Assembly: GCA_021808285.1 (NCBI GenBank)
Contig: JAKBBV010000001.1
Span: 1-64,000 of the forward strand
DNA: 64,000 nt
Direction: 5' to 3'
Source of the DNA: Pseudomonadota bacterium
GTDB taxonomy: Bacteria; Pseudomonadota; Alphaproteobacteria; Caulobacterales; Caulobacteraceae
In this document: positions 929-13,907 of the stretch, piece after piece
Numbering within the stretch: position 1 is the first letter of the stretch
Layout: the number at the start of each line of letters is the position of its first letter
Program-made: the position numbers and the translations under genes
The notes under the pieces: model-generated
Database searches by the model: none
Seen by the model: the letters and a program-made list of their open reading frames with translations, nothing else
What the model was told of the DNA's origin: nothing

Positions 929-1147
929 TGCGGGGCTCCCTTGGAGGTCAGGTAGCGACTTCGGCCGCCAAGCTTCCTATGCCGCAACGCCCCCTGGCGG
1001 TCGATGGGACGAGGGCGTATCGGCGCGATCTCGAGTGGGCGCCGGCTCAGACGGGTCGGATCCGGCCTTGACCGCGCGAGCCGAAGCGCGATGGATCGGT
1101 CTGGAGCGAAAGCAGCCATGGCCAAAGGCGGACGGGGAGCTGGTTTC

Positions 1148-1984
1148 ATGGACATGGGGCAAGTCCTCCCGCCCGGTCTCGACGCCTTTGCGCCCTGGCT
1201 CAGTCGCTGGCGCCTGACGCCGGATGGCGAGCCCTTCGAGACCCAATTCGGAAACCTCCTCGTGCCGGTTCTCCGGCGCGGCCAGTCGGCCATGCTCAAG
1301 ATCGCCGGCGGCGAGGAGGAGAGGCGCGGCGGCGCGCTCATGGCTTGGTGGAAGGGCGAGGGGGCGGCCCGGGTCCTGGCGCGCAAGGGTGAGGCGATTC
1401 TGCTCGAACGCCTGATCGGCCCACGGGATCTTGCGGCGATGTCGCGCAACGGCGGCGATGTCGAGGTGACGCTGATCCTCTGCCAGACGGCCGCTCGGCT
1501 GCACGCTCCTCGATCCGAGCCGCCGCCTTGCACCCTTATCCCCTTGGATCGGTGGTTTGGGGCCCTGGCGCCGGCTGCCGCGACCCATGACGGGGCCTAT
1601 CGGCGCGCGTGGGTGGCTGCACGGCGCCTGCTCGCCGAGCCGCGAGATGAGGTCGTTCTTCACGGTGATCTGCACCATGAGAATGTGCGCGACGGCGGTC
1701 CGCGTGGCTGGTGCGCCATTGATCCCAAGGGCCTCTGGGGCGAACGCGCCTTCGACTACGCAAATCTCTTCCGCAATCCCTGTGCGGAGGTCGCCCTTGC
1801 GCCGGGCGCCCTCAGGCGGCGACTTGACCTGGTGTGTGGGACCGCCGGACTAGAACCGCGCCGCATGCTCAGTTGGGTGCTGGTCTATGCGGGTCTGGGC
1901 GCCTCCTGGAGCCTTCAGGGCGGCCAGGATCCCGGCGCCAGCCTGGCCATCGCTGAACTCGCAGCCGCCGAGCTTGGCCTTTGA
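1148..1984 (+). CDS. Aminoglycoside phosphotransferase family kinase, APH(6)/hydroxyurea-kinase type
   Basis: 278 residues from the chosen ATG, which has a GGGGAG ribosome binding site 8 bases upstream. An in-frame ATG lies further upstream but lacks one. The catalytic loop VVLHGDLHHENV (about residues 170-181) and the metal-binding AIDPKGLWGERAFDYANLF are diagnostic of the APH fold and of the subfamily containing streptomycin 6-phosphotransferases. Family membership is clear. Whether it gives streptomycin resistance is unknown, since most chromosomal homologues have no tested substrate. It is convergent with the CocE-type hydrolase (10-base gap) and divergent from the histidine phosphatase. 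Confidence 0.8.
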   Translation: MDMGQVLPPGLDAFAPWLSRWRLTPDGEPFETQFGNLLVPVLRRGQSAMLKIAGGEEERRGGALMAWWKGEGAARVLARKGEAILLERLIGPRDLAAMSRNGGDVEVTLILCQTAARLHAPRSEPPPCTLIPLDRWFGALAPAAATHDGAYRRAWVAARRLLAEPRDEVVLHGDLHHENVRDGGPRGWCAIDPKGLWGERAFDYANLFRNPCAEVALAPGALRRRLDLVCGTAGLEPRRMLSWVLVYAGLGASWSLQGGQDPGASLAIAELAAAELGL

Positions 1985-4440: not shown

Positions 4441-6150
4441 TCAGCCGAAGGTGAAGGTAAAGGCCTGCGCGCCGGGATCGTCAAATACGATCTCGAAGGT
4501 CCGATCGGCCACGACGCCCTTCTGTCGCACCAGCTGGTAAAGTCTCTGGTCCGTCACCGCGCCGCGACCCTCGGCATCCGTGTCGACCCCGTGGTCTGGG
4601 CCTGGTGGGCGTCCATTGAGCAGGATGTGGAAGCGCACGGGTCGGCCATCGGCGGCTCCCAGCACCATATGCAGGTCGCGGGCATGGAAGCGAAAGGCGA
4701 TCTCCCCGCCGCTTCGCTCCAGGGTGGCGTGCTCGGCGCTGACGGTCCAGTCCCCGCCGAGGCCCCAGGTGTTCAGCCTCGTTGGATGGGGCTCCGGATA
4801 GATATGCGCCTGGTTCCGGACGGCCTCGCCCAGCATGTCCGCGCCGCGTCCATATCCAAGATAGGTCTCGCCCGAACGGATGTCGCCCATATCGGCTGCC
4901 GCCGTCGCCCCGCGGCACTCAACCCAGACCACGCCCTGGCTGAGGGCCATGTCCCCGTTCTCGACCAGAAGGCGCTGGATGATGCGCTCGGACTGCGCTT
5001 CATCGCCCTCGCCAAAGTGGTGGGCGCGAATGTGGCCCTGGCCGTCGACGAAAAAGTCAGCCGGCCAGTATTGATTGTGGAAGGCGTCCCAGATGCGGTG
5101 GCGGCTGTCTACAGCCACGGGGAAGGCGATGCCGAGGTCGCGCACCGCTCTCTCCACATTGGCTGGTTCGCGCTCGAAAGCGAACTCGGGTGTGTGGACG
5201 CCGATCACCACCAGGCCCTGGCTCGCATACTTGGCCGCCCACGCCTTTACATAGGGTATGGAGCGCAGACAGTTGATGCAGGAATAGGTCCAGAAATCCA
5301 CCAGGACGACCTTGCCGCGCAGGGTCGCGCGAGTGAGCGGCGGCGAGTTGATCCACTCCACCGCGCCGTCGAGCGCAGGCATCTGACCTTCCACCGGCAG
5401 GGGGCCGGTCGCGGCCGGGTTGCTGTTCCTGGGGCCCATATGAACCCGGGCGAGCAGGGCAGCTTCGAGCTTCGAGGTGCTGGCGGCTGAGACCCGCGTC
5501 AGAAGTCCAGTGTCGAGGTGGAGGGCGATGGCCACTACCCCTGCGAGAACCAAGGCGCCTAAGCCCCGGCGAATCCGCTCCCCTGCATGCAGGGACCGCT
5601 TCATGGCCGAGAATACCCGCTCCCCCGCCAGTAGGGCCAGAGCGAGCGAAGTCGCCGCCCCGGCGGCATAGGCCAGGAGCAGGCCGGTGGTTTCCCAGCT
5701 CGCGCCTTTGAGGGCGGCGGCGGTGAGAATCAGGCCGAGGATTGGGCCGGCGCAGGGGGCCCATAGAAGGCCGGTAGCGACACCCAGAAGCAGGGAGCCG
5801 GCGATCGATCCCTCGCGCCCGATGTGGTTCGACAGACCCGCACCCAGAGCCACGAGGGGCCGGGTCAGATGGTCCGCCAGGGCGGGCAGAAGCAGCATGA
5901 GGCCGAAAAGCGTCAGCACGACCATGGCCGCGACCCGCGCAACGCCGTTGACCTGCACCGCCCATCCGCCTCCCACCGCCGCCAGCGTGGCTACAGCCGC
6001 AAACGTCGCACCCATACCCAGCAGAAGCGGCAGTCCGCTCCTGACGAAAGGTCTGTCCGAGCGCGCAAATACGAAGGGCAACACCGGCAGGATGCACGGG
6101 CTGAGAATGGTGAAAGCGCCGCCAGCATAGGCGAGCAGGATCAGAACCAC
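4441..6150 (-). CDS. dipZ: DipZ-type protein: CcdA membrane domain, thioredoxin domain and C-terminal module
   Basis: 569 residues. The N-terminal half is a CcdA/DsbD-type electron-transfer membrane domain with the two redox cysteines in LSPCILPVLPF and LLWAPCAGPI. A periplasmic TlpA/thioredoxin-like domain follows, with a CINC active site near residues 290-293 (DFWTYSCINCLRSIPYV). A C-terminal beta-rich module (EIAFRFHARDLHMVLG, PDHGVDTDAEGRG) is the usual third part of DipZ. Known role: moving electrons from cytosolic thioredoxin across the membrane to periplasmic thiols. The gene is divergent from the sigma-factor locus, whose TlpA-like protein could be a downstream partner (inference). 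Confidence 0.88.
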   Translation of the reverse strand: MVLILLAYAGGAFTILSPCILPVLPFVFARSDRPFVRSGLPLLLGMGATFAAVATLAAVGGGWAVQVNGVARVAAMVVLTLFGLMLLLPALADHLTRPLVALGAGLSNHIGREGSIAGSLLLGVATGLLWAPCAGPILGLILTAAALKGASWETTGLLLAYAAGAATSLALALLAGERVFSAMKRSLHAGERIRRGLGALVLAGVVAIALHLDTGLLTRVSAASTSKLEAALLARVHMGPRNSNPAATGPLPVEGQMPALDGAVEWINSPPLTRATLRGKVVLVDFWTYSCINCLRSIPYVKAWAAKYASQGLVVIGVHTPEFAFEREPANVERAVRDLGIAFPVAVDSRHRIWDAFHNQYWPADFFVDGQGHIRAHHFGEGDEAQSERIIQRLLVENGDMALSQGVVWVECRGATAAADMGDIRSGETYLGYGRGADMLGEAVRNQAHIYPEPHPTRLNTWGLGGDWTVSAEHATLERSGGEIAFRFHARDLHMVLGAADGRPVRFHILLNGRPPGPDHGVDTDAEGRGAVTDQRLYQLVRQKGVVADRTFEIVFDDPGAQAFTFTFG

Positions 6151-6421: not shown

Positions 6422-6553
6422 ATGGCCGTCCATCCCCCGGTGCGGAGGTCTGGCCGCAGTCGCGCCGCCGTCCGCGAGGTCGCTGCCGGGCCTCGCGTCG
6501 CGTGCGCCCGGATCGTGGGGGCGTTCGACTATCGTCGCGTCGGCGATGGCTGA
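6422..6553 (+). CDS. 43-residue leader ORF overlapping the sigma-factor start
   Basis: The ATG at 6422 is preceded by a near-consensus AAGGAG at 6409-6414 with a 7-base spacer, the best ribosome binding site in this region. The ORF ends with TGA at 6551-6553, overlapping the sigma-factor ATG (6546) by 8 bases. The peptide is Arg/Ala/Val-rich (starts MAVHPPVRRSGRSRAAV) and I recognise no family. The sigma ATG has no good site of its own, so translational coupling is the likely purpose. It could instead mark an alternative N-terminus after a frameshift. Confidence 0.45.
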   Translation: MAVHPPVRRSGRSRAAVREVAAGPRVACARIVGAFDYRRVGDG

Positions 6554-7070
6554 CGACGTCCCGGCGCGCGGCCTTGTAGAGACCTACCTCGAACGCCGCC
6601 TTGATCTCGAACGTCACTTCTCGGCGCGTCTGGGTTCGCAGGACGCCGCGCGCGGCCTAGTGCAAGACATCTATCTCAAAATCGCTCACAGGCCGGTAGA
6701 GCCGATCGACAATCCGGTGGCCTATCTCTACCGCCTGGGCGCCAATCTTATGCTCGACCAACTCAGGTCCGAGCGGCGGGCCAAGGCTCGCGCCATGGCC
6801 TGGAGCGAGATTCACACACCCGTCCAGGGCGTCCAGGTCGCCGCCGAGGAACCATCGGCCGAGACGGTGGTTCTCGCACGGGAGCAACTCCAGCGCGTGC
6901 TTGAGGCGGTCCGGGAGCTTCCGTCGCCGGTCCAGGAGGCATTCCGGCTGCATAAGCTTGAGGGGCGCAGCCATGCGGAAACCGCCGCCGCCATGGGCGT
7001 CTCCCGCTCAAGCGTGGAGAAATATCTCATGACCAGTCTCAAATGGATCCTGGCGAGGGTCCATCGATGA
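6546..7070 (+). CDS. ECF RNA polymerase sigma factor, FecI type
   Basis: 174 residues, typical ECF length. Region 2 is seen in LVQDIYLKIAHRPVEPIDNP and AYLYRLGANLMLDQLRSERR. Region 4 with its helix-turn-helix is LPSPVQEAFRLHKLEG then SHAETAAAMGVSRSSVEKYL. FecI-type factors are held by a FecR anti-sigma protein and released when a TonB receptor with an N-terminal signalling domain binds its ligand; both partners lie downstream. The stop overlaps the start of the 35-codon micro-ORF (ATGA at 7067-7070), so translation is probably coupled. Confidence 0.92.
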   Translation: MADDVPARGLVETYLERRLDLERHFSARLGSQDAARGLVQDIYLKIAHRPVEPIDNPVAYLYRLGANLMLDQLRSERRAKARAMAWSEIHTPVQGVQVAAEEPSAETVVLAREQLQRVLEAVRELPSPVQEAFRLHKLEGRSHAETAAAMGVSRSSVEKYLMTSLKWILARVHR

Positions 7071-7174
7071 AGGTCGCCAAGCCTTTCGACCGCGAGATTG
7101 AGGTGCGGCGCGCGCTACGGCGTCTAGAGTCCGCGACCATTCTCACGGTCCGGGAGATGGGGCTCTCAGCATGA
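7067..7174 (+). CDS. 35-residue micro-ORF bridging the sigma factor and FecR by ATGA overlaps
   Basis: The ATG at 7067 overlaps the sigma-factor stop (ATGA), and its own TGA at 7172-7174 overlaps the fecR ATG at 7171 (again ATGA). It fills the whole 100-base gap between those genes with an open frame. The peptide starts MKVAKPFDREIEVRRALRR and ends TVREMGLSA; it looks like one charged amphipathic helix. No family recognised. Likely a translational relay keeping sigma and anti-sigma in proportion, possibly with a function as a peptide. The double overlap is directly visible; the role is inferred. Confidence 0.55.
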   Translation: MKVAKPFDREIEVRRALRRLESATILTVREMGLSA

Positions 7175-8190
7175 CTGACCGCACCCTCAGAGATATCCCG
7201 CAGTCGGTTCGCGACGAGGCTGTCGCATGGCTGGTGCGCATTGAGTCCGATCAGGTGACGGGGGACGATTATGCCGCCCTGACCGCCTGGCTTGAGCAGT
7301 CCGACGCCCATGTCCAGGCCTTCAACGCGGCCGAGGCGTTCTCTCGGCGTCTCGAAGCCGCAGCCGGCCAGATCTCCACGGCGCTCGGCGACCGCTCCGG
7401 CCGCGGCGTCGCGGACGACGTTTGCTCAATCAACTCGGCATCGCCCGTTCGATCCCATCGCCCCGTTCCCATCTGGCGGTCTCCCGCCCTGAGGGCGGCC
7501 GCCCTCGCCGCCCTGACCGTTCTTGGAGGCGTGGCCGTCACGCGCGCCTATATCGGCTCCGTGACCGCCTATCGGACTGCTCCTGGAGAAACGCGGGCTC
7601 TGGCCTTGAGGGACGGCACCCGTCTCGAACTCGACGCCGATACCCATGTGTCGGTGCGTTTCGGCTGGACCGCCCGGCGGGTCGATCTCGTCGAGGGAGA
7701 GGTCAGCTTCGATGTGGCCAAGGATCCGCGGCGGCCCTTTCTGGTCGATATCGGCGACGAGACGGTGCGGGTTGTCGGCACTCAGTTCAACATCCGACGC
7801 TTTGGCGGCGAGACGGCGGTGACGGTGCGTCGTGGTGTTGTCGAGGTCTATGACGGCGCCCCTGTGGGCGCGCCGGTGGCGCGCCTGACCCGGGGCTGGG
7901 CCCTGGTCCACAGGGATGGTGCGGCGGGCTCCCAGGTCTCCACGGTAGACCCCGATGTGGCCTTTGCCTGGACCAAAGGTCAGTTGATCTGCGACGACCA
8001 GCCCTTGCCGGAGATCGTCGGCTACCTTAATCGCCGCTTTCCCGTCCCGATCCATCTGTCGGAGGAAGCGGCCAAGCGCAGATTCTCCGGCGTGCTGGCC
8101 TTGCGAAGTCAGCAAGAGGCGGCACGAGATCTCGCCCAGTATCTCTCCCTATCTGAAGAGCAGACCGACCGCGGCATCGTCCTGCGATGA
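7171..8190 (+). CDS. FecR family anti-sigma / signal-transducing membrane protein
   Basis: 339 residues. An N-terminal cytoplasmic DUF4880-type domain (VRDEAVAWLVRIESDQVTGD, DYAALTAWLEQSDAHVQAFN) binds the sigma factor. One membrane segment lies at about residues 107-128. The periplasmic FecR domain follows (YRTAPGETRALALRDGTRLE, VEGEVSFDV, VRVVGTQFNIR). The C-terminal part (LPEIVGYLNRRFPVPIHLSE, RFSGVLAL) resembles DUF4974 and would contact the receptor's signalling domain. Its stop at 8188-8190 overlaps an ATG at 8187, which would be the expected coupled start of the receptor, except that this ATG is out of frame with it. Confidence 0.92.
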   Translation: MTDRTLRDIPQSVRDEAVAWLVRIESDQVTGDDYAALTAWLEQSDAHVQAFNAAEAFSRRLEAAAGQISTALGDRSGRGVADDVCSINSASPVRSHRPVPIWRSPALRAAALAALTVLGGVAVTRAYIGSVTAYRTAPGETRALALRDGTRLELDADTHVSVRFGWTARRVDLVEGEVSFDVAKDPRRPFLVDIGDETVRVVGTQFNIRRFGGETAVTVRRGVVEVYDGAPVGAPVARLTRGWALVHRDGAAGSQVSTVDPDVAFAWTKGQLICDDQPLPEIVGYLNRRFPVPIHLSEEAAKRRFSGVLALRSQQEAARDLAQYLSLSEEQTDRGIVLR

Positions 8191-10633
8191 GTCCGCCGGC
8201 TCAGCCTGGAGTGCCGGGCGACGGCTGTGGATCGCCGTCGGCCTGGCGCTCGCGTGTGGCGCGCTGATCCCGCCATCTCCTACCGAAGCCGAGGCCGCAG
8301 ACCGAGCCGTCTATTTCAATATACCGTCCGGCCCCTTGGGGAGGGAGTTGGTCGCTTTCGCCGTTCAGGCCGGCGTGTCCATCGACACGCGCCGCGCCAG
8401 CGCCTGTGGGCCGGTTGGGCGCGCGGTCATCGGCCGGTTCACGGCCTCGGCCGCCCTGAAGCGCATTCTGGCCGGCGGGCGGTGCAGCTTCCGCTTGGTC
8501 GGGGAGGGGGCCTTCGATCTGGCGCCCAGGCCGTCGAGACCCTCAACGTCACGACCGCCTCCGCCTTCGCTCTCCTATGCGCCTGCCGAAGGTGAGGTGG
8601 CGCCGCTGATCGTTCTGGCGCCCGAACGCCCGACGACGGCGGATCGGCTCGCCGACGCCGTCACCGCCCAATCTGGATCGACCCTGCTGGCCCAGGGGGT
8701 GGCCGACCTGTCTGGAGTGGCCCAGATCGTCCCGGGGATGATCGAGACGAATTTGGGAGCGGGCCGCGATAAGATATTCCTTCGTGGCCTTTCGGACGGC
8801 CCCCTGACGGGCAACACCCAGTCCGTGGTCGCGATCTATCTTGATGATGTCCGGCTGACCTTCAACGCACCGGACCCGGACCTGCGGCTGACCGACATGG
8901 AGAGGGTCGATGTGTTGCGCGGGCCACAGGGCGCTCTTTACGGCGCCGGATCCCTGGGCGGGGTCGTCCATCTGGTCTCCACGCCGCCCAACCCGGACCG
9001 GCTCGAAACCTGGGCCCAGGCGAGTTATGGCCTCACGGCGGCAGGGGGAGACTCCCAGGCCCTGGACGGGGTCCTCAACCTGCCCTTCGGCGGCGGGCGC
9101 GGCGCGGCGCGTCTGGTGCTCTATCGCGAGATCGACGGCGGTTATCTCGACAATCCGGGACTCGGTCTCACGAACACAAATCAGACTCTGCGCCAGGGGG
9201 GGCGGCTAGCCGCGGCCTTCACCTTGCCCGATGGCTGGAGCCTGAGTCTCGGCGGGGTTCTCCAGAGCCTGAACGCCAATGACACCCAATATACGACCGA
9301 CCCGACCATCCCCTATGTCCGCAACACCGCGATTCTTGAGCCCTACGACAATGACTTCGGCGAACTTCACTTCGGCCTCCATGGCGATGCCGGCCCGGCC
9401 GTGGCCAATCTCTCACTGGCCTACATCCACCATGTCCTCGACAGTCGCTATGACGCCTCAACTGCGCCTCCTCTCGGCCCCGCCTCGGGCCCGGCCGCCT
9501 ATGACGAGCACGACGCCAATGATGGAATGGTGGCGGAGGGGACCCTGGCCTCGCATCCCTCTTCCCCAACCCAATGGCTGCTCGGCGCCTTCTTCGCCCA
9601 GACCCGCGAACTCGGTAGCGCCGCCCTAATTGACCTGGGATCGCCGGCGACGACCGTGGACCAGAGCAACCGCGTGGGTCTGCTGACCGAAGGCGCGCTC
9701 TACGGCGAAGTCGTCTTCCCGCTGCTGCGCGGCCTGGACCTGACGACGGGAGGCCGACTGTTTGTCTATGACGACGCCATCTCGTCCACGGTCTTCGCGC
9801 CGGGCTTTCCCTCGGCGACACCCTTCTTCGGCCGCGTGTCGCATGTGGGCGTCGCTCCCAAGCTGGTGCTCAGCTACACGCCGTCCTCGACGATTCTGTT
9901 CTATGCGCAGGCGGCGGAAGGATACCGCGGTCCCGGAATCAATACCGCGGCGACGCCGCTGGAAGCCTTCGGCGGGACCGCCGGCATCGTGCGTAGCTAC
10001 CAAGCCGATGAACTCTGGGGACTGGAAACGGGCCTCAAGCTTCGCCTGTTCGACGACCGCCTGCACCTGAGGACCGCCTTGTTCCAGGACGACTGGACCG
10101 GCGTGCAGAGCGATCAACTCCTGCCCTCGGGCCTGCCCTACACGGCTAATATCGGCGACGGGCGTGACAGAGGCGTCGAGGCGGAGATTGACTATCGCCA
10201 GGGGGGGCTGAACCTGAGCGGTTCGCTCCTCGCGGATCACCCCGAACTCATTCGCGCCGCCCCCGGATTCACCAACCTCGTCGGCAGCGATCTTGGCGCC
10301 GCGCCGGAATTCATGGCCAATCTGGAAGCCGTCTACGGATGGAGTCTCTCGACGTCTTGGCGGTTTGAGGCCGATGGACGGGTCAGTTATGTGGGCCCCT
10401 CCCAACTCACCCTGAACACGGTCCCTACCCGGACGATGACCGGCTATACGACCGGTCGTCTCGCCCTCAGCCTGGCCCAGACGCGATGGCGCCTCACCCT
10501 CGCCGTCGAAAATCCGGCCGACATCCAGGGAGACACCTTCGCCTATGGCAATCCCTTCACGCTGCGCGCCCAACGCCAGGTCACGCCCTTGAGGCCGCGT
10601 ATGGTGAGCCTAGCACTCCAGGTCGCGTATTGA
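8187..10633 (+). CDS. TonB-dependent outer-membrane receptor with signalling (STN) domain; apparent frameshift at its start
   Basis: The continuous frame encodes a signal peptide (RRLWIAVGLALACG, ending EAEA), an STN domain (RAVYFNIPSGPLGRELVAFA) and a plug with DMERVDVLRGPQGALYGAGS. A 22-strand-type barrel then runs to the aromatic terminus VSLALQVAY. That frame has no ATG, GTG or TTG before a TTG at 8336, which lies inside the STN domain. The ATG at 8187, overlapping the fecR stop, is one base out. One extra G in the GGG at 8216-8218 would join it in frame to the signal peptide. Open frame without correction: 8336-10633, 765 residues. STN domains signal to FecR; the ligand is unknown. Confidence 0.85.
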
Positions 10634-10704
10634 GGCCGAAGGACGTGGTCGAAAAAAACAGGCCGCACAATTGAGGTGATCCCGCTGCGGCGGCGTCTCA
10701 CTTG

Positions 10705-11271
10705 ATGCGGCCGGGCTTGGCGGCCGCGCGACCCGGAATCGCCACCTTGCCGACCGTCCCCTTGTCATCCGCCCAGCACCCTGAGGGACCGGGGCGCCGG
10801 CGACGCTGGTCTCGCTCCGCCTTGGCAGGGCTCATGGTCTGGGTCTTGGGCCTGGTCCTGGCGGCTCCAGCGACCGTCAGCGCCCGCGCGGCGCCCTTGG
10901 ACCTCACCCCCTACAAGGGAAAGGTCGTCTACCTGGACTTCTGGGCGTCCTGGTGTGGGCCCTGTCGCCTGTCCTTTCCCTATATCGAGCAGGTCGCCTC
11001 TGCCTATTCGAGCCACGACCTCGTCGTCCTTGCGGTGAATGTCGACCACTCTCGCGCCAAAGCAGACGGCTTCCTGAACAGCATGGGGATCCACCCCACG
11101 GTCATCTACGACCCGTCAGGCGCCATCGCTCGCAGCTTTCACATTTCGGAGATGCCAACTTCTATTTTGATCGATCGATCAGGCCATACGCGCTTCATTC
11201 AACAGGGATTTTTCGAGAACAAGATCAGCGAATATCAAGCTCATATCGAGACCCTCATTCATGAAAGATAA
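10705..11271 (+). CDS. TlpA-like periplasmic thioredoxin
   Basis: 188 residues. An Arg-rich n-region and hydrophobic segment (residues about 38-60) form a signal peptide or anchor ending at VSARA. The redoxin domain has the WCGPC active site (Cys84, Cys87) in LDFWASWCGPCRLSFPYIEQ. The cis-Pro is in FHISEMPTSILIDRSG. Expected job: reducing disulfides or thiols outside the cytoplasm. The gene is 71 bases after the receptor and overlaps the DUF4266 gene by 11 bases, so it belongs to the same unit. A likely client is the CGC tail of the DUF4266 lipoprotein (inference). DipZ, encoded divergently, could supply its electrons. Confidence 0.88.
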   Translation: MRPGLAAARPGIATLPTVPLSSAQHPEGPGRRRRWSRSALAGLMVWVLGLVLAAPATVSARAAPLDLTPYKGKVVYLDFWASWCGPCRLSFPYIEQVASAYSSHDLVVLAVNVDHSRAKADGFLNSMGIHPTVIYDPSGAIARSFHISEMPTSILIDRSGHTRFIQQGFFENKISEYQAHIETLIHER

Positions 11272-11509
11272 GCAGAAACAACTCGAGGTCATGAAGCAAA
11301 TCTTATTGTACGCGGTCGGCGGGGTGCTGGCCTTCATGGTTTCGGGATGTATGGGAGCGGCGGCCTGGGATCGCGACCTCCTCGCCCAAAGGCCGATGTC
11401 GCTCAACGCCTATCCCAACCTGGCTGCATTCCACGACCACATCTATTTCAGCAAGGAAGGGTCAAGCGGCGGCCGCACCACCGATGGAGGCGGCTGCGGA
11501 TGCAACTGA
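11261..11509 (+). CDS. DUF4266-type small lipoprotein with Gly-rich CGC tail
   Basis: 82 residues. A lipobox VSGC places the lipidated cysteine at residue 30 (or 20 from the second Met at 11291). The mature part reads AWDRDLLAQRPMS, then HIYFSKEGSSGGRT, and ends TTDGGGCGCN with Cys79 and Cys81. This pattern (WDRDLL, YFSKEG, Gly tail, CGCN) is what I recognise as the DUF4266 family, whose function is unknown. It overlaps both neighbours: the TlpA gene by 11 bases and the DUF3570 gene by 10. The Ser/Thr-Gly segment beside an ApbE gene suggests a flavinylation or metal-binding tail, a hypothesis only. Confidence 0.8.
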   Translation: MKDKQKQLEVMKQILLYAVGGVLAFMVSGCMGAAAWDRDLLAQRPMSLNAYPNLAAFHDHIYFSKEGSSGGRTTDGGGCGCN

Positions 11510-12906
11510 GATCACGCGGTCGCGGCCGGCTCTGCCGCACACTCGGCCTGCTGACGGCCAACCTGTTCGTCGTCACGGGCGTCCAGGCTCAGCAGGCGCC
11601 CTCCGGATCTAACGAGGCGACGCCCAGCACTGAACTTGTCAGCGACGAGGCCCCGCAGTCCGACTTGGGCATGACCCGGATCGATACCTCGGTCCTGTTC
11701 TACCAGGAGGACGGCGGACGTGTCCGGACCATAGAGCCTGTGGCGCTGGCGACACTCAATGCCGATAACGGCGACATCCTGACGGTCAAGCTGACCTCGG
11801 ACACGCTCACGGGCGCCACGCCTAACGGCGCCACGCCCTGGACCTCAACCCAGACCTTCACCACCCCGGCGCATGCGCCAGGGACCCAGTCCGTGGTCAC
11901 CGGGTCCTCCGGCGGCAGCAAGCTCGTCACAATCCCCGGCGTCGGCACGATCGTACGGCAATATAGCACTGCGCCGAACCAGCTCCCCGTGGATGCCGGA
12001 TTCCGGGACCAGCGCGAAGCCATCGACCTGGGCTATTCCTCCCAGCTCAATGCGGACACCAGCCTGAGCGGCGGCCTCGGAGGCAGCGTCGAGCGCGACT
12101 ACACCTCTCTGACGGGAAGTCTGGGCGGCGCGCGCGACTTCAACCACAAGAACACGACGCTCTCCGCCAGCTTCAATTTCGAGTATGACCTTTCACGCCC
12201 CTATTTCGGTACGCCGACCCCGCTCACCGTGATGAGCGGCGACCCCAAGGGGCCCAGCGCCAGCAAACGCGTCTACAATGTCGTTCTGGGCGTTACCCAG
12301 GTCATGACACGACGATGGCTGCTGGAGCTGAACTACAGTTACGGATCAACCCAGGGCTACCAGACCGATCCTTATCTCATCATCTCGGTCGTCGATCCCA
12401 CCGGCGCGCCGCTCGAATATCTCTATGAAAGCCGGCCCAATACGCGGACGCGCGAGAGCGTCTATATGGACAACAGGATCGCGGTCGGTCCCACTTTCGC
12501 CGACCTCACGGCGCGTTATTATTGGGACAGTTGGGGGATCAAGTCCGTGACCGTGGGAGCATCCGATCGCATCCCGCTCATTGGCGGCCTCTATGTTGAA
12601 CCGGAGGGACGTTACTACGATCAGACCGCGGCGAGCTTCTTCCACAACTACCTGCTCTCCACCCAGCCCATCCCGACCTATGCCAGTTCTGACAGCCGTT
12701 TGAGCAAATTCTCCGCCGTCACAGCCGGGGCTCGGATCGGGCTCAAGGTCGGCTCCACGGGTGAACTCTATTTGGAGGGTGAGCGTTACATTCAGACGGG
12801 CGTCAACCACCCCGCTGGCGCGCCGGGCGCGCTTGCCATGGAGAACCTATTCAGCGGGGTCTCCGCCACGAGCTTCGTTCTGGGCTATACCTTCGCCTTC
12901 TACTGA
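11500..12906 (+). CDS. DUF3570 family outer-membrane protein
   Basis: 468 residues from the ATG at 11500, which overlaps the DUF4266 stop. A signal peptide is seen (CRTLGLLTANLFVVTGVQAQ). The mature protein has alternating beta-strand patterns (TTLSASFNFEYDLSRPYFG, RWLLELNYSYGSTQGY, ADLTARYYWDSWGIKSVTVG) and ends FVLGYTFAFY with a C-terminal aromatic, typical of outer-membrane barrels. The position between a DUF4266 lipoprotein and ApbE is the arrangement I associate with this family. The function is unknown; a porin or export partner for the lipoprotein or its cofactor is inferred. Confidence 0.82.
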   Translation: MQLRSRGRGRLCRTLGLLTANLFVVTGVQAQQAPSGSNEATPSTELVSDEAPQSDLGMTRIDTSVLFYQEDGGRVRTIEPVALATLNADNGDILTVKLTSDTLTGATPNGATPWTSTQTFTTPAHAPGTQSVVTGSSGGSKLVTIPGVGTIVRQYSTAPNQLPVDAGFRDQREAIDLGYSSQLNADTSLSGGLGGSVERDYTSLTGSLGGARDFNHKNTTLSASFNFEYDLSRPYFGTPTPLTVMSGDPKGPSASKRVYNVVLGVTQVMTRRWLLELNYSYGSTQGYQTDPYLIISVVDPTGAPLEYLYESRPNTRTRESVYMDNRIAVGPTFADLTARYYWDSWGIKSVTVGASDRIPLIGGLYVEPEGRYYDQTAASFFHNYLLSTQPIPTYASSDSRLSKFSAVTAGARIGLKVGSTGELYLEGERYIQTGVNHPAGAPGALAMENLFSGVSATSFVLGYTFAFY

Positions 12907-12953
12907 CGACGCCTCTTGGCGAGGGGCCCGGACCGGCGGGAGGCTCGTCGCTT

Positions 12954-13907
12954 TTGCGCAGGGCCAGTGTGTCCATGACCGCCACGGGCGTTCTGAGCCG
13001 AATCGAAGGTGGGTATCTCCATTCCTTCCGGGCCATGGCCTCGCCGTGCGAACTGCGCGTCCTGTGCGACGATGAGGCGCTGTCCGCTCGCCTGGGCAGG
13101 ATGGTTGAGAATGAGGCTCTGCGGATCGAGCGCAAGTTCAGCCGTTATCGGGACGACAGCGTCATCGGGCGGATCAATAAGGCCGGGGGTGCGGCGGTGG
13201 AGGTCGACGAGGAGACGGCCGGTCTTCTCGACTACGCAGACCGGATCTATGCCCTCAGCGGCGGGCGGTTCGACATCACTTCCGGTGTTCTGCGCCGGCT
13301 ATGGAGGTTCGACGGATCCGACCGGATCCCCTCGGCGGCGGAAGTCCGCTCACTCCTGCCCCTGATCGGTTGGCGCAAGGTGGTTTGGCGCGACCGGCGC
13401 CTCGCCCTGAGAGCCGGGATGGAGATCGACTTCGGCGGTTTGGGCAAGGAATATGCGGTGGACCGCTGCCTGCTCATGGTTCAGGCCGCCGCCCCCGCGA
13501 CCCCGGCTCTCGTCAATTTTGGCGGCGACCTCCGGGTGAGCGGGCCGCGCGCGGATGGGTCGCGTTGGCGCGTAGCCATCGAGTCGGTGGATGGAGGCCA
13601 GACCTATGAGGGGTGGCTGGAAATCGCTTCCGGCGCCCTCACCACCAGCGGCGACGCGCGTCGCTTCCTGCTCAAGGACGGCATCCGCTACAGCCACATT
13701 CTCGACCCGCGCACGGGTTGGCCGGTGAGAGATCCTCCCCGTTCGGTTACGGTCGCCGCAGCTACCTGTCTGGAGGCGGGCCTGCTCTCGAGCCTGGCTA
13801 TGATGCATGGGAGGGACGCCGAAGCCTTCCTCGCTCGTGAGGGGGTCAAGGCTTGGTGGGTGCGGGATGACGCGGCGACTGGCGCCGTCACGAAGAACGC
13901 TTCCTAG
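12954..13907 (+). CDS. apbE: FAD:protein FMN transferase, ApbE family, without a signal peptide
   Basis: 317 residues from a TTG with GGGAGG about 10 bases upstream; an ATG at 12975 is the alternative. ApbE motifs are present: FSRYRDDSVIGRIN, GRFDITSGVL, DFGGLGKEYAVDR, ALTTSGDARRF and YSHILDPRTGWPV. ApbE moves FMN from FAD to a Ser/Thr of a target protein, usually in the periplasm. No signal peptide or lipobox is visible, and the bases between DUF3570 and the start encode no hydrophobic stretch, so this copy looks cytoplasmic. Last gene of the locus; no classical target such as NqrC or RnfG is in the window. Confidence 0.88.
   Translation: MRRASVSMTATGVLSRIEGGYLHSFRAMASPCELRVLCDDEALSARLGRMVENEALRIERKFSRYRDDSVIGRINKAGGAAVEVDEETAGLLDYADRIYALSGGRFDITSGVLRRLWRFDGSDRIPSAAEVRSLLPLIGWRKVVWRDRRLALRAGMEIDFGGLGKEYAVDRCLLMVQAAAPATPALVNFGGDLRVSGPRADGSRWRVAIESVDGGQTYEGWLEIASGALTTSGDARRFLLKDGIRYSHILDPRTGWPVRDPPRSVTVAAATCLEAGLLSSLAMMHGRDAEAFLAREGVKAWWVRDDAATGAVTKNAS

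What the first reader, a model, noticed from the sequence alone, without database searches (positions are those of the whole stretch)
6422..13907. Self-regulated envelope redox locus: ECF sigma, FecR, TonB receptor, TlpA, DUF4266 lipoprotein, DUF3570 barrel and ApbE
Nine consecutive + strand ORFs are packed with overlaps or gaps under 75 bases. They join a ligand-sensing FecI/FecR/TonB-receptor circuit to a thiol-redox protein, a CGC-tailed lipoprotein, an outer-membrane barrel and a flavin transferase. Known: FecR circuits sense a ligand at the receptor; ApbE attaches FMN; TlpA reduces thiols. Inferred: the receptor imports or senses a metal, cofactor or peptide, and the other four genes build a flavin- or thiol-bearing surface protein that works with it. 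The DUF4266/DUF3570 pair has no assigned function that I know of.
Basis: partly seen in the sequence, partly recalled or inferred. Interest (0 to 1): 0.72.

Follow-up and report, generated by a model that had tools for sequence, protein, structure and literature searches.

The report
Flavin-carrying outer-membrane barrel redox cassette
This is a known but poorly understood gene set that builds a flavin-bearing outer-membrane barrel protein and its thiol electron donors, here placed behind a self-regulated nutrient receptor; new signs are that the flavin is fixed on before the protein leaves the cytoplasm and ends up at the outer mouth of the barrel.

Summary
The locus is real: seven genes, not nine. 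ECF sigma 6546-7070, FecR 7171-8190, STN-TonB receptor ~8201-10633, TlpA 10705-11271, DUF4266 11261-11509, DUF3570 11500-12906, ApbE 12975-13907, in a Caulobacteraceae MAG. The TlpA/DUF4266/DUF3570/ApbE core is published (Meheust 2021): ApbE flavinylates DUF3570. New here: (1) DUF3570 is predicted to be a 16-stranded outer-membrane barrel. Its flavin residue (mature Thr77) sits at the extracellular mouth, where conserved polar residues concentrate (16 upper half, 1 lower). (2) ApbEs of these cassettes lack a signal peptide (0/45), whereas 19/20 other ApbEs from the same genomes have one. So flavinylation probably precedes export. (3) DUF4266 (C-terminal CGCN) and DUF3570 occur in the same 29 of 398 Pseudomonadota genomes. 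(4) The FecI/FecR/receptor module lies near the cassette in 9 of 13 Caulobacteraceae carriers, in three orientations, but almost never elsewhere, where two-component systems often take its place. Best reading: a thiol-to-flavin relay delivering electrons to the outer surface, coupled in this family to uptake of a siderophore-like ligand. The ligand, electron acceptor and direct electron transfer are inferred. Verdict: new variant of a known kind.

The parts
6546..7070 (+). ECF (FecI-type) sigma factor
   Evidence: Pfam Sigma70_r4_2 1e-12, Sigma70_r2 1e-5; 46-60% identical orthologues sit next to the same receptor clade in G061 and G008
7171..8190 (+). FecR anti-sigma / signal transducer
   Evidence: Pfam FecR 4e-22, DUF4880 2e-11
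8201..10633 (+). STN-type TonB-dependent receptor (transducer); start codon unresolved
   Evidence: Pfam barrel 1e-24 and plug 5e-15; signalling domain matches HasR/FemA/FoxA; best NCBIfam hit TonB-siderophor 1e-23, below cut-off; no canonical in-frame start
10705..11271 (+). exported TlpA/ResA-like thioredoxin (WASWCGPC)
   Evidence: Pfam Redoxin 2e-19; present in 49 of 54 tabulated loci
11261..11509 (+). DUF4266 lipoprotein (VSGC lipobox)
   Evidence: Pfam 4e-18; present beside DUF3570 in all loci
11495..11506 (+). codons of the C-terminal CGCN tail of DUF4266; the last codons overlap the DUF3570 start ATG at 11500
   Evidence: C-terminal CGCN in 55 of 56 homologues; sequence
11500..12906 (+). 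DUF3570 outer-membrane barrel, ApbE substrate
   Evidence: Pfam 4e-91; AlphaFold2 16-stranded barrel, pTM 0.72
11800..11820 (+). flavinylation motif D-T-L-T-G-A-T (mature residues 71-77, acceptor Thr77), acceptor is the first residue after strand 3
   Evidence: sequence; fits D-x-x-[S/T]-G-A-[S/T] (PMC12052999); site aligned in 43 of 54 homologues
11824..11835 (+). second, imperfect site N-G-A-T
   Evidence: sequence; a double site was shown for the C. luteolum protein (PMC8238504)
12975..13907 (+). ApbE flavin transferase without signal peptide
   Evidence: Pfam 7e-69; only ApbE of the genome; no signal peptide
4441..6150 (-). divergent neighbour: DipZ-like fusion (CcdA-like membrane part, thioredoxin-like domain, Thioredoxin_10), possible electron source; not a conserved neighbour
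   Evidence: Pfam Thioredoxin_10 3e-42, AhpC-TSA 2e-10; full-length copy seen beside the cassette only in this window

Best explanation
Electrons come from the inner-membrane DsbD (elsewhere in this genome) or the DipZ-like neighbour. They are passed by the exported thioredoxin TlpA to the CGC tail of the lipoprotein DUF4266, and from there to FMN held covalently in the outer-membrane barrel DUF3570. ApbE has no signal peptide, so it attaches the FMN to Thr77 (mature numbering) in the cytoplasm, on the unfolded chain, before Sec export and barrel assembly. In the folded barrel the FMN points into the lumen at the extracellular mouth, beside a ring of conserved charged residues, where it can reduce an external acceptor. 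In Caulobacteraceae the cassette is placed with a FecI/FecR/TonB-receptor circuit, so it is probably made when the receptor's ligand (most likely a ferric chelate) is present and serves to reduce or release that ligand's metal. Shown: gene content, motif, absence of a signal peptide, predicted barrel topology, obligate pairing. Known for the family: ApbE flavinylates DUF3570. Inferred: electron route, surface reduction, iron, cytoplasmic timing.
For: C. luteolum DUF3570 is flavinylated by its cognate ApbE (PMC8238504). Canonical motif in the window and at the same aligned position in 43 of 54 homologues. This genome has one ApbE, one DUF3570, no FMN_bind and no DUF2271, so DUF3570 is the only recognised substrate. 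Two models made from the same 11 sequences give 16 strands with the acceptor residue right after up-going strand 3; structural matches are outer-membrane barrels. Conserved strand positions: 25 upper half vs 4 lower half, p 1e-5; at the next threshold polar ones 16 vs 1. Side-chain parity puts D71..T77 inward. Signal peptides: ApbE 0/45, against TlpA 33/40, DUF4266 44/45 and DUF3570 49/53; other ApbEs of the same genomes 19/20, p 2e-15. DUF4266 and DUF3570 in the same 29 of 398 genomes. DsbD directly behind ApbE in genus g15. Receptor clade in 13/13 DUF3570 carriers vs 134/286 non-carriers of the family, p 7e-5, not corrected for relatedness.
Against: No Fur box was found, and VIT1 lies near only 1 of 12 Caulobacteraceae cassettes and 9.9 kb away, so iron rests on receptor class and on published associations. 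The receptor clade is mostly found without DUF3570. Eleven homologues keep DUF4266 and DUF3570 but lack the flavin site, so flavin is not essential to the whole family; four Bacteroidota ones lack it although ApbE is adjacent. AlphaFold used 11 sequences (mean pLDDT 72; loops below 50). No coordinates were available, so inward orientation is from alternation only.
Confidence: 0.5

Rival explanations
1. The cassette is a thiol-disulfide and flavin repair or stress system for outer-membrane proteins (reducing disulfides or oxidised residues at the cell surface), and the receptor circuit is an unrelated neighbour kept close by chance and shared ancestry.
For: TlpA/DsbD partners are typical of envelope repair. 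Outside Caulobacteraceae the cassette has other neighbours, such as two-component systems in 14-16 of 42 loci. The receptor clade exists without the cassette in most genomes.
Against: Linkage in 9 of 13 carriers, in three different orientations, is far above the about 1% expected per genome by distance alone. Receptor co-occurrence 13/13 vs 134/286. No repair enzyme (Msr) was noticed in the conserved set.
Confidence: 0.2
2. DUF4266 is a metal-binding or metal-delivery lipoprotein (CGC binds Cu or Fe), TlpA keeps its thiols reduced, and the DUF3570 barrel is a metal channel whose flavin changes the metal's redox state during passage.
For: Invariant C-terminal CGC. Conserved charged lumen. Pairing persists in members without the flavin site.
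Against: No metal transporter or metallochaperone was found to be conserved in the loci. No metal-specific regulator was identified: the histidine kinases score below the heavy-metal cut-off.
Confidence: 0.15
3. The system is a respiratory or extracellular electron-transfer conduit that disposes of electrons to external acceptors, comparable in role to MtrCAB but without cytochromes.
For: Flavin predicted at the outer mouth. MtrB appears among the structural matches (rank 36). Flavinylation serves extracellular electron transfer in other bacteria (PMC8238504).
Against: No quinol dehydrogenase or respiratory gene was seen in the conserved set. MtrB's match is no better than that of ordinary porins. 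Placement under a ligand-sensing uptake circuit suggests assimilation instead.
Confidence: 0.15

Closest known systems
DsbD-type DUF3570 flavinylation system (Meheust et al. 2021, eLife 10:e66878, PMC8238504)
   Same: ApbE, DUF3570 with [S/T]GA[S/T] motif, thioredoxin-like protein and DUF4266 with C-terminal CXC, in one cluster
   Different: Here no DsbD is adjacent; a FecI/FecR/TonB-receptor module stands in front. Barrel position of the flavin, absence of an ApbE signal peptide and the swap of regulators are not mentioned in the passages of the paper read here
FecI/FecR/FecA ligand-sensing circuit
   Same: ECF sigma, FecR with DUF4880, receptor with N-terminal signalling domain, in that order
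   Different: Ligand unknown; receptor below every curated siderophore, haem or B12 cut-off; flavin/thiol cassette downstream instead of a FecBCDE-type importer
PepSY-like flavinylation clusters with TonB receptor
   Same: Flavin-based reduction proposed for siderophore iron next to a TonB receptor (PMC8238504)
   Different: No DUF2271 or FMN_bind in this genome; the flavin carrier is an outer-membrane barrel
MtrCAB trans-outer-membrane conduit
   Same: Would carry electrons through an outer-membrane barrel to the surface
   Different: 16 predicted strands, no haem; covalent flavin and thiols instead; electron conduction not shown

Membership tests
DsbD-type DUF3570 flavinylation system | ApbE in the cluster | tested here: met
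   Pfam 7e-69 at 12975-13907
DsbD-type DUF3570 flavinylation system | DUF3570 with D-x-x-[S/T]-G-A-[S/T] site | tested here: met
   DTLTGAT at 11800-11820; second site NGAT is imperfect
DsbD-type DUF3570 flavinylation system | Thioredoxin-like protein | tested here: met
   Redoxin/AhpC-TSA at 10705-11271, CGPC; the paper names PF13899, here another Pfam family of the fold
DsbD-type DUF3570 flavinylation system | DUF4266 with C-terminal CXC | tested here: met
   CGCN tail
DsbD-type DUF3570 flavinylation system | DsbD in the same cluster (optional: the paper counts 316 clusters without it) | tested here: not met
   Only Pfam-level DsbD of the genome is on another contig; the adjacent DipZ-like fusion is a possible substitute
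DsbD-type DUF3570 flavinylation system | Covalent FMN on DUF3570 in vivo | not testable with these tools
   needs mass spectrometry or UV gel
FecI/FecR/FecA-type circuit | ECF sigma, FecR and receptor adjacent in order | tested here: met
FecI/FecR/FecA-type circuit | Receptor with N-terminal signalling (STN) domain | tested here: met
   matches HasR and FemA signalling domains, query residues 27-112; Pfam STN itself did not reach 0.001
FecI/FecR/FecA-type circuit | Ligand-dependent induction of the downstream genes | not testable with these tools
   needs expression data; no promoter above chance
Known siderophore receptor families | Score above a curated NCBIfam cut-off | tested here: not met
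   best TonB-siderophor 83.5 bits vs cut-off 223.5
Outer-membrane beta-barrel | Even-stranded barrel, short periplasmic turns, C-terminal aromatic, signal peptide | tested here: met
   16 strands; C-terminal aromatic; signal peptide-like core in 49 of 53 homologues

The most novel reading that the evidence does not exclude
DUF3570/DUF4266 is a cytochrome-free conduit across the outer membrane. The flavin is attached in the cytoplasm, carried through SecYEG and the Bam machinery on the unfolded chain, and ends at the extracellular mouth of the barrel. The glycine-rich CGCN tail of DUF4266 threads into the lumen from the periplasm to hand over electrons.
Probability: 0.3. Interest if true: 0.85.

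Novelty: new variant of a known kind. Interest (0 to 1): 0.55.

Why it matters
If right, a covalently flavinylated outer-membrane barrel would be a way to bring electrons to the cell surface without haem, and the first flavinylation known to me that is completed before export to the outer membrane. It would give a function to two conserved families (DUF3570, DUF4266), make the timing of flavinylation testable by moving ApbE between compartments, and tie surface reduction to uptake through a self-regulated TonB receptor.

Tried and rejected
Nine-gene reading: rejected, extra ORFs are shadows. DUF4266 as flavin carrier: no motif; the site is in DUF3570. Second ApbE substrate in this genome: FMN_bind and DUF2271 absent. 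Fur or Irr box and sigma-70 promoters: nothing above shuffles. The genome's own copy of the T_hemolysin operon that accompanies the receptor clade: T_hemolysin absent. Copper or heavy-metal signal from the neighbouring two-component systems of other proteobacteria: best families are mostly QseC/PmrB/BaeS-like, all below cut-off. Sequence homologue of DUF3570 in PDB: none. Cassette-linked receptors as one clade: not so, three label changes on the tree, though sampling was centred on the window's receptor. Literature on the T_hemolysin/haem-oxygenase-like operon: nothing found.
Full report
Observation. The window lies in a Caulobacteraceae MAG (G000, 2.9 Mb; nearest named relatives are uncultured Caulobacteraceae). 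The reported stretch holds seven genes: ECF sigma, FecR, STN-type TonB receptor, TlpA, DUF4266, DUF3570 and ApbE. The rest of the listed ORFs are shadows in other frames. TlpA/DUF4266 and DUF4266/DUF3570 overlap: the codons of the DUF4266 tail GCGCN-stop contain the DUF3570 start. The receptor frame has no ATG, GTG or TTG before its signal peptide, so its start is unresolved.

What was known. Meheust et al. 2021 (PMC8238504) showed that the Chlorobium luteolum DUF3570 is flavinylated by its cognate ApbE at two [S/T]GA[S/T] motifs. They described clusters of ApbE, DUF3570, a thioredoxin-like protein, DUF4266 (C-terminal CXC) and often DsbD as a hybrid thiol/flavin electron-transfer system of uncertain function, with some links to the VIT1 iron transporter. 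Full-text searches found no other paper in the held library naming either DUF. The passages read do not mention a barrel, FecR or sigma factors, nor in their text the missing signal peptide of the DUF3570-linked ApbE; figures and supplements were not available.

Neighbourhoods. DUF3570 occurs in 13 of 299 Caulobacteraceae, 5 of 385 of the class sample (one of them below the family's cut-off) and 29 of 398 of the phylum sample. DUF4266 was found in all 56 DUF3570 loci examined, adjoining DUF3570 in all but L007, and its C-terminus is CGCN in 55 and CGCY in one. In the 398-genome sample DUF4266 above cut-off and DUF3570 occur in the same 29 genomes, with matching copy numbers in the three genomes that hold two. 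Regulators differ by lineage: FecR lies in the fetched stretch in 8 of 12 Caulobacteraceae loci and 1 of 42 others; a histidine kinase or response regulator in 0 of 12 and 14-16 of 42. A few stretches were cut short by contig ends.

Receptor link. Homologues of the window receptor (E below 1e-90) are in 147 of 299 Caulobacteraceae, among them all 13 DUF3570 carriers; Fisher p 7e-5, without correction for relatedness. Linked within about 10 kb: the window and G061 (same direction, upstream), G008 (divergent), five genomes of one genus (convergent), and G018 (convergent, about 9 kb), nine of 13 in all. G085 and G294 have the receptor on another contig, G119 lacks it nearby, G277 is a fragment. 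On a tree, cassette-linked receptors need three label changes. In genomes without DUF3570 the same receptor, with its own ECF and FecR, usually stands divergent to a T_hemolysin, AMP-binding, haem-oxygenase-like and SDR operon, sometimes followed by VIT1. G061 has both arrangements at once. This genome lacks T_hemolysin. I infer that the receptor takes up a small secreted product, possibly a metal chelate, which some lineages make and this one may only scavenge.

Flavin site and barrel. The window motif DTLTGAT fits the seven-residue ApbE motif (PMC12052999). A G-containing site is at the aligned position in 43 of 54 homologues; the remaining 11 mostly have S or N instead of G. AlphaFold models of the window protein (pTM 0.72, strands mostly pLDDT 80-94) and of a Rheinheimera homologue (pTM 0.67), both from the same 11 sequences, agree on 16 strands, short turns on one side and long loops on the other, with the acceptor residue first after up-going strand 3. 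Foldseek and VIA-align return outer-membrane barrels, with no specific relative. Of strongly conserved strand positions, 25 lie in the extracellular half and 4 in the periplasmic half (p 1e-5); polar or charged ones 16 and 1. Alternation of hydrophobicity over 54 sequences puts D71, G75 and T77 on the inward side. So the working site is probably the outer part of the lumen, around the flavin.

ApbE location. None of the 45 ApbE frames in flavin-motif loci has a signal-like core before the domain; in several an in-frame stop leaves fewer than 25 residues. With a comparable criterion TlpA has one in 33 of 40, DUF4266 in 44 of 45 and DUF3570 in 49 of 53. Of 20 other ApbEs from the same genomes 19 have one, mostly with a lipobox. 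The one exception lies about 5 kb from a motif-less DUF3570 copy. The criterion is a simple hydrophobicity window, not a trained predictor. Cytosolic ApbEs are known for a cytosolic fumarate reductase (PMC12052999); here the substrate is exported. Since ApbE needs only a short linear motif and the site would be buried in the barrel, flavinylation before export is the simplest reading. SecYEG is reported to pass bulky adducts (Bonardi 2011, cited in PMC8082313; content of that paper from memory).

Mechanism. Electrons: DsbD (other contig) or the DipZ-like neighbour, then TlpA, then DUF4266 CGC, then FMN in DUF3570, then an external acceptor. The DUF4266 tail is 48-60 residues from the lipobox Cys to the CGC, long enough to enter the barrel; this is inference. 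Pairing of DUF4266 with DUF3570 even where the flavin site is absent suggests that the tail-barrel contact is the older core and flavin an added relay.

Judgement. The core is published, so the finding is a new variant of a known kind. What raises interest is the combination of a predicted surface-level covalent flavin, an apparently cytoplasmic transferase and an obligate thiol-tailed partner, all directly testable.

Noticed in passing
L073, L074, L084, L095, L098-L102: A second DUF3570 class: most members have S or N in place of the flavin-site G and no adjacent ApbE. It sits in a conserved cluster with an HZS_alpha-domain protein, an SH3-barrel protein, TPR and laminin-G proteins; function unknown.
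   Followed up: partly
L134-L152, L034:13649-18045: Conserved operon T_hemolysin, AMP-binding, haem-oxygenase-like (PF14518), SDR, TPR, divergent from the ECF-FecR-receptor module: looks like an undescribed small-molecule pathway with its own receptor, sometimes with VIT1.
   Followed up: partly
L008-L011: Bacteroidota DUF3570s have ApbE next door but no [S/T]GA[S/T] site at the aligned position; a TGGIGTE segment is conserved in most instead.
   Followed up: no
window 8100-8340: Receptor lacks a canonical start codon in frame; the ATG overlapping the FecR stop is out of frame, suggesting an indel in the MAG or an unusual start.
   Followed up: partly
window 11495-11509: The stop region of DUF4266 (TGC GGA TGC AAC TGA) doubles as the start of DUF3570 (ATG CAA CTG); ATGCAA overlap is found in 34 of 56 loci.
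   Followed up: partly
window 4441-6150: DipZ-like fusion on the opposite strand; its full-length form is seen beside the cassette only here.
   Followed up: partly
window 956-1981: Aminoglycoside/hydroxyurea phosphotransferase-like gene (APH_6_hur, 6e-74).
   Followed up: no
L035:3858-4961, L141:5581-6513, L142:8429-9556: Another ApbE with an EF-hand neighbour lies near the cassette or near the receptor in different genomes; its substrate is unknown.
   Followed up: partly
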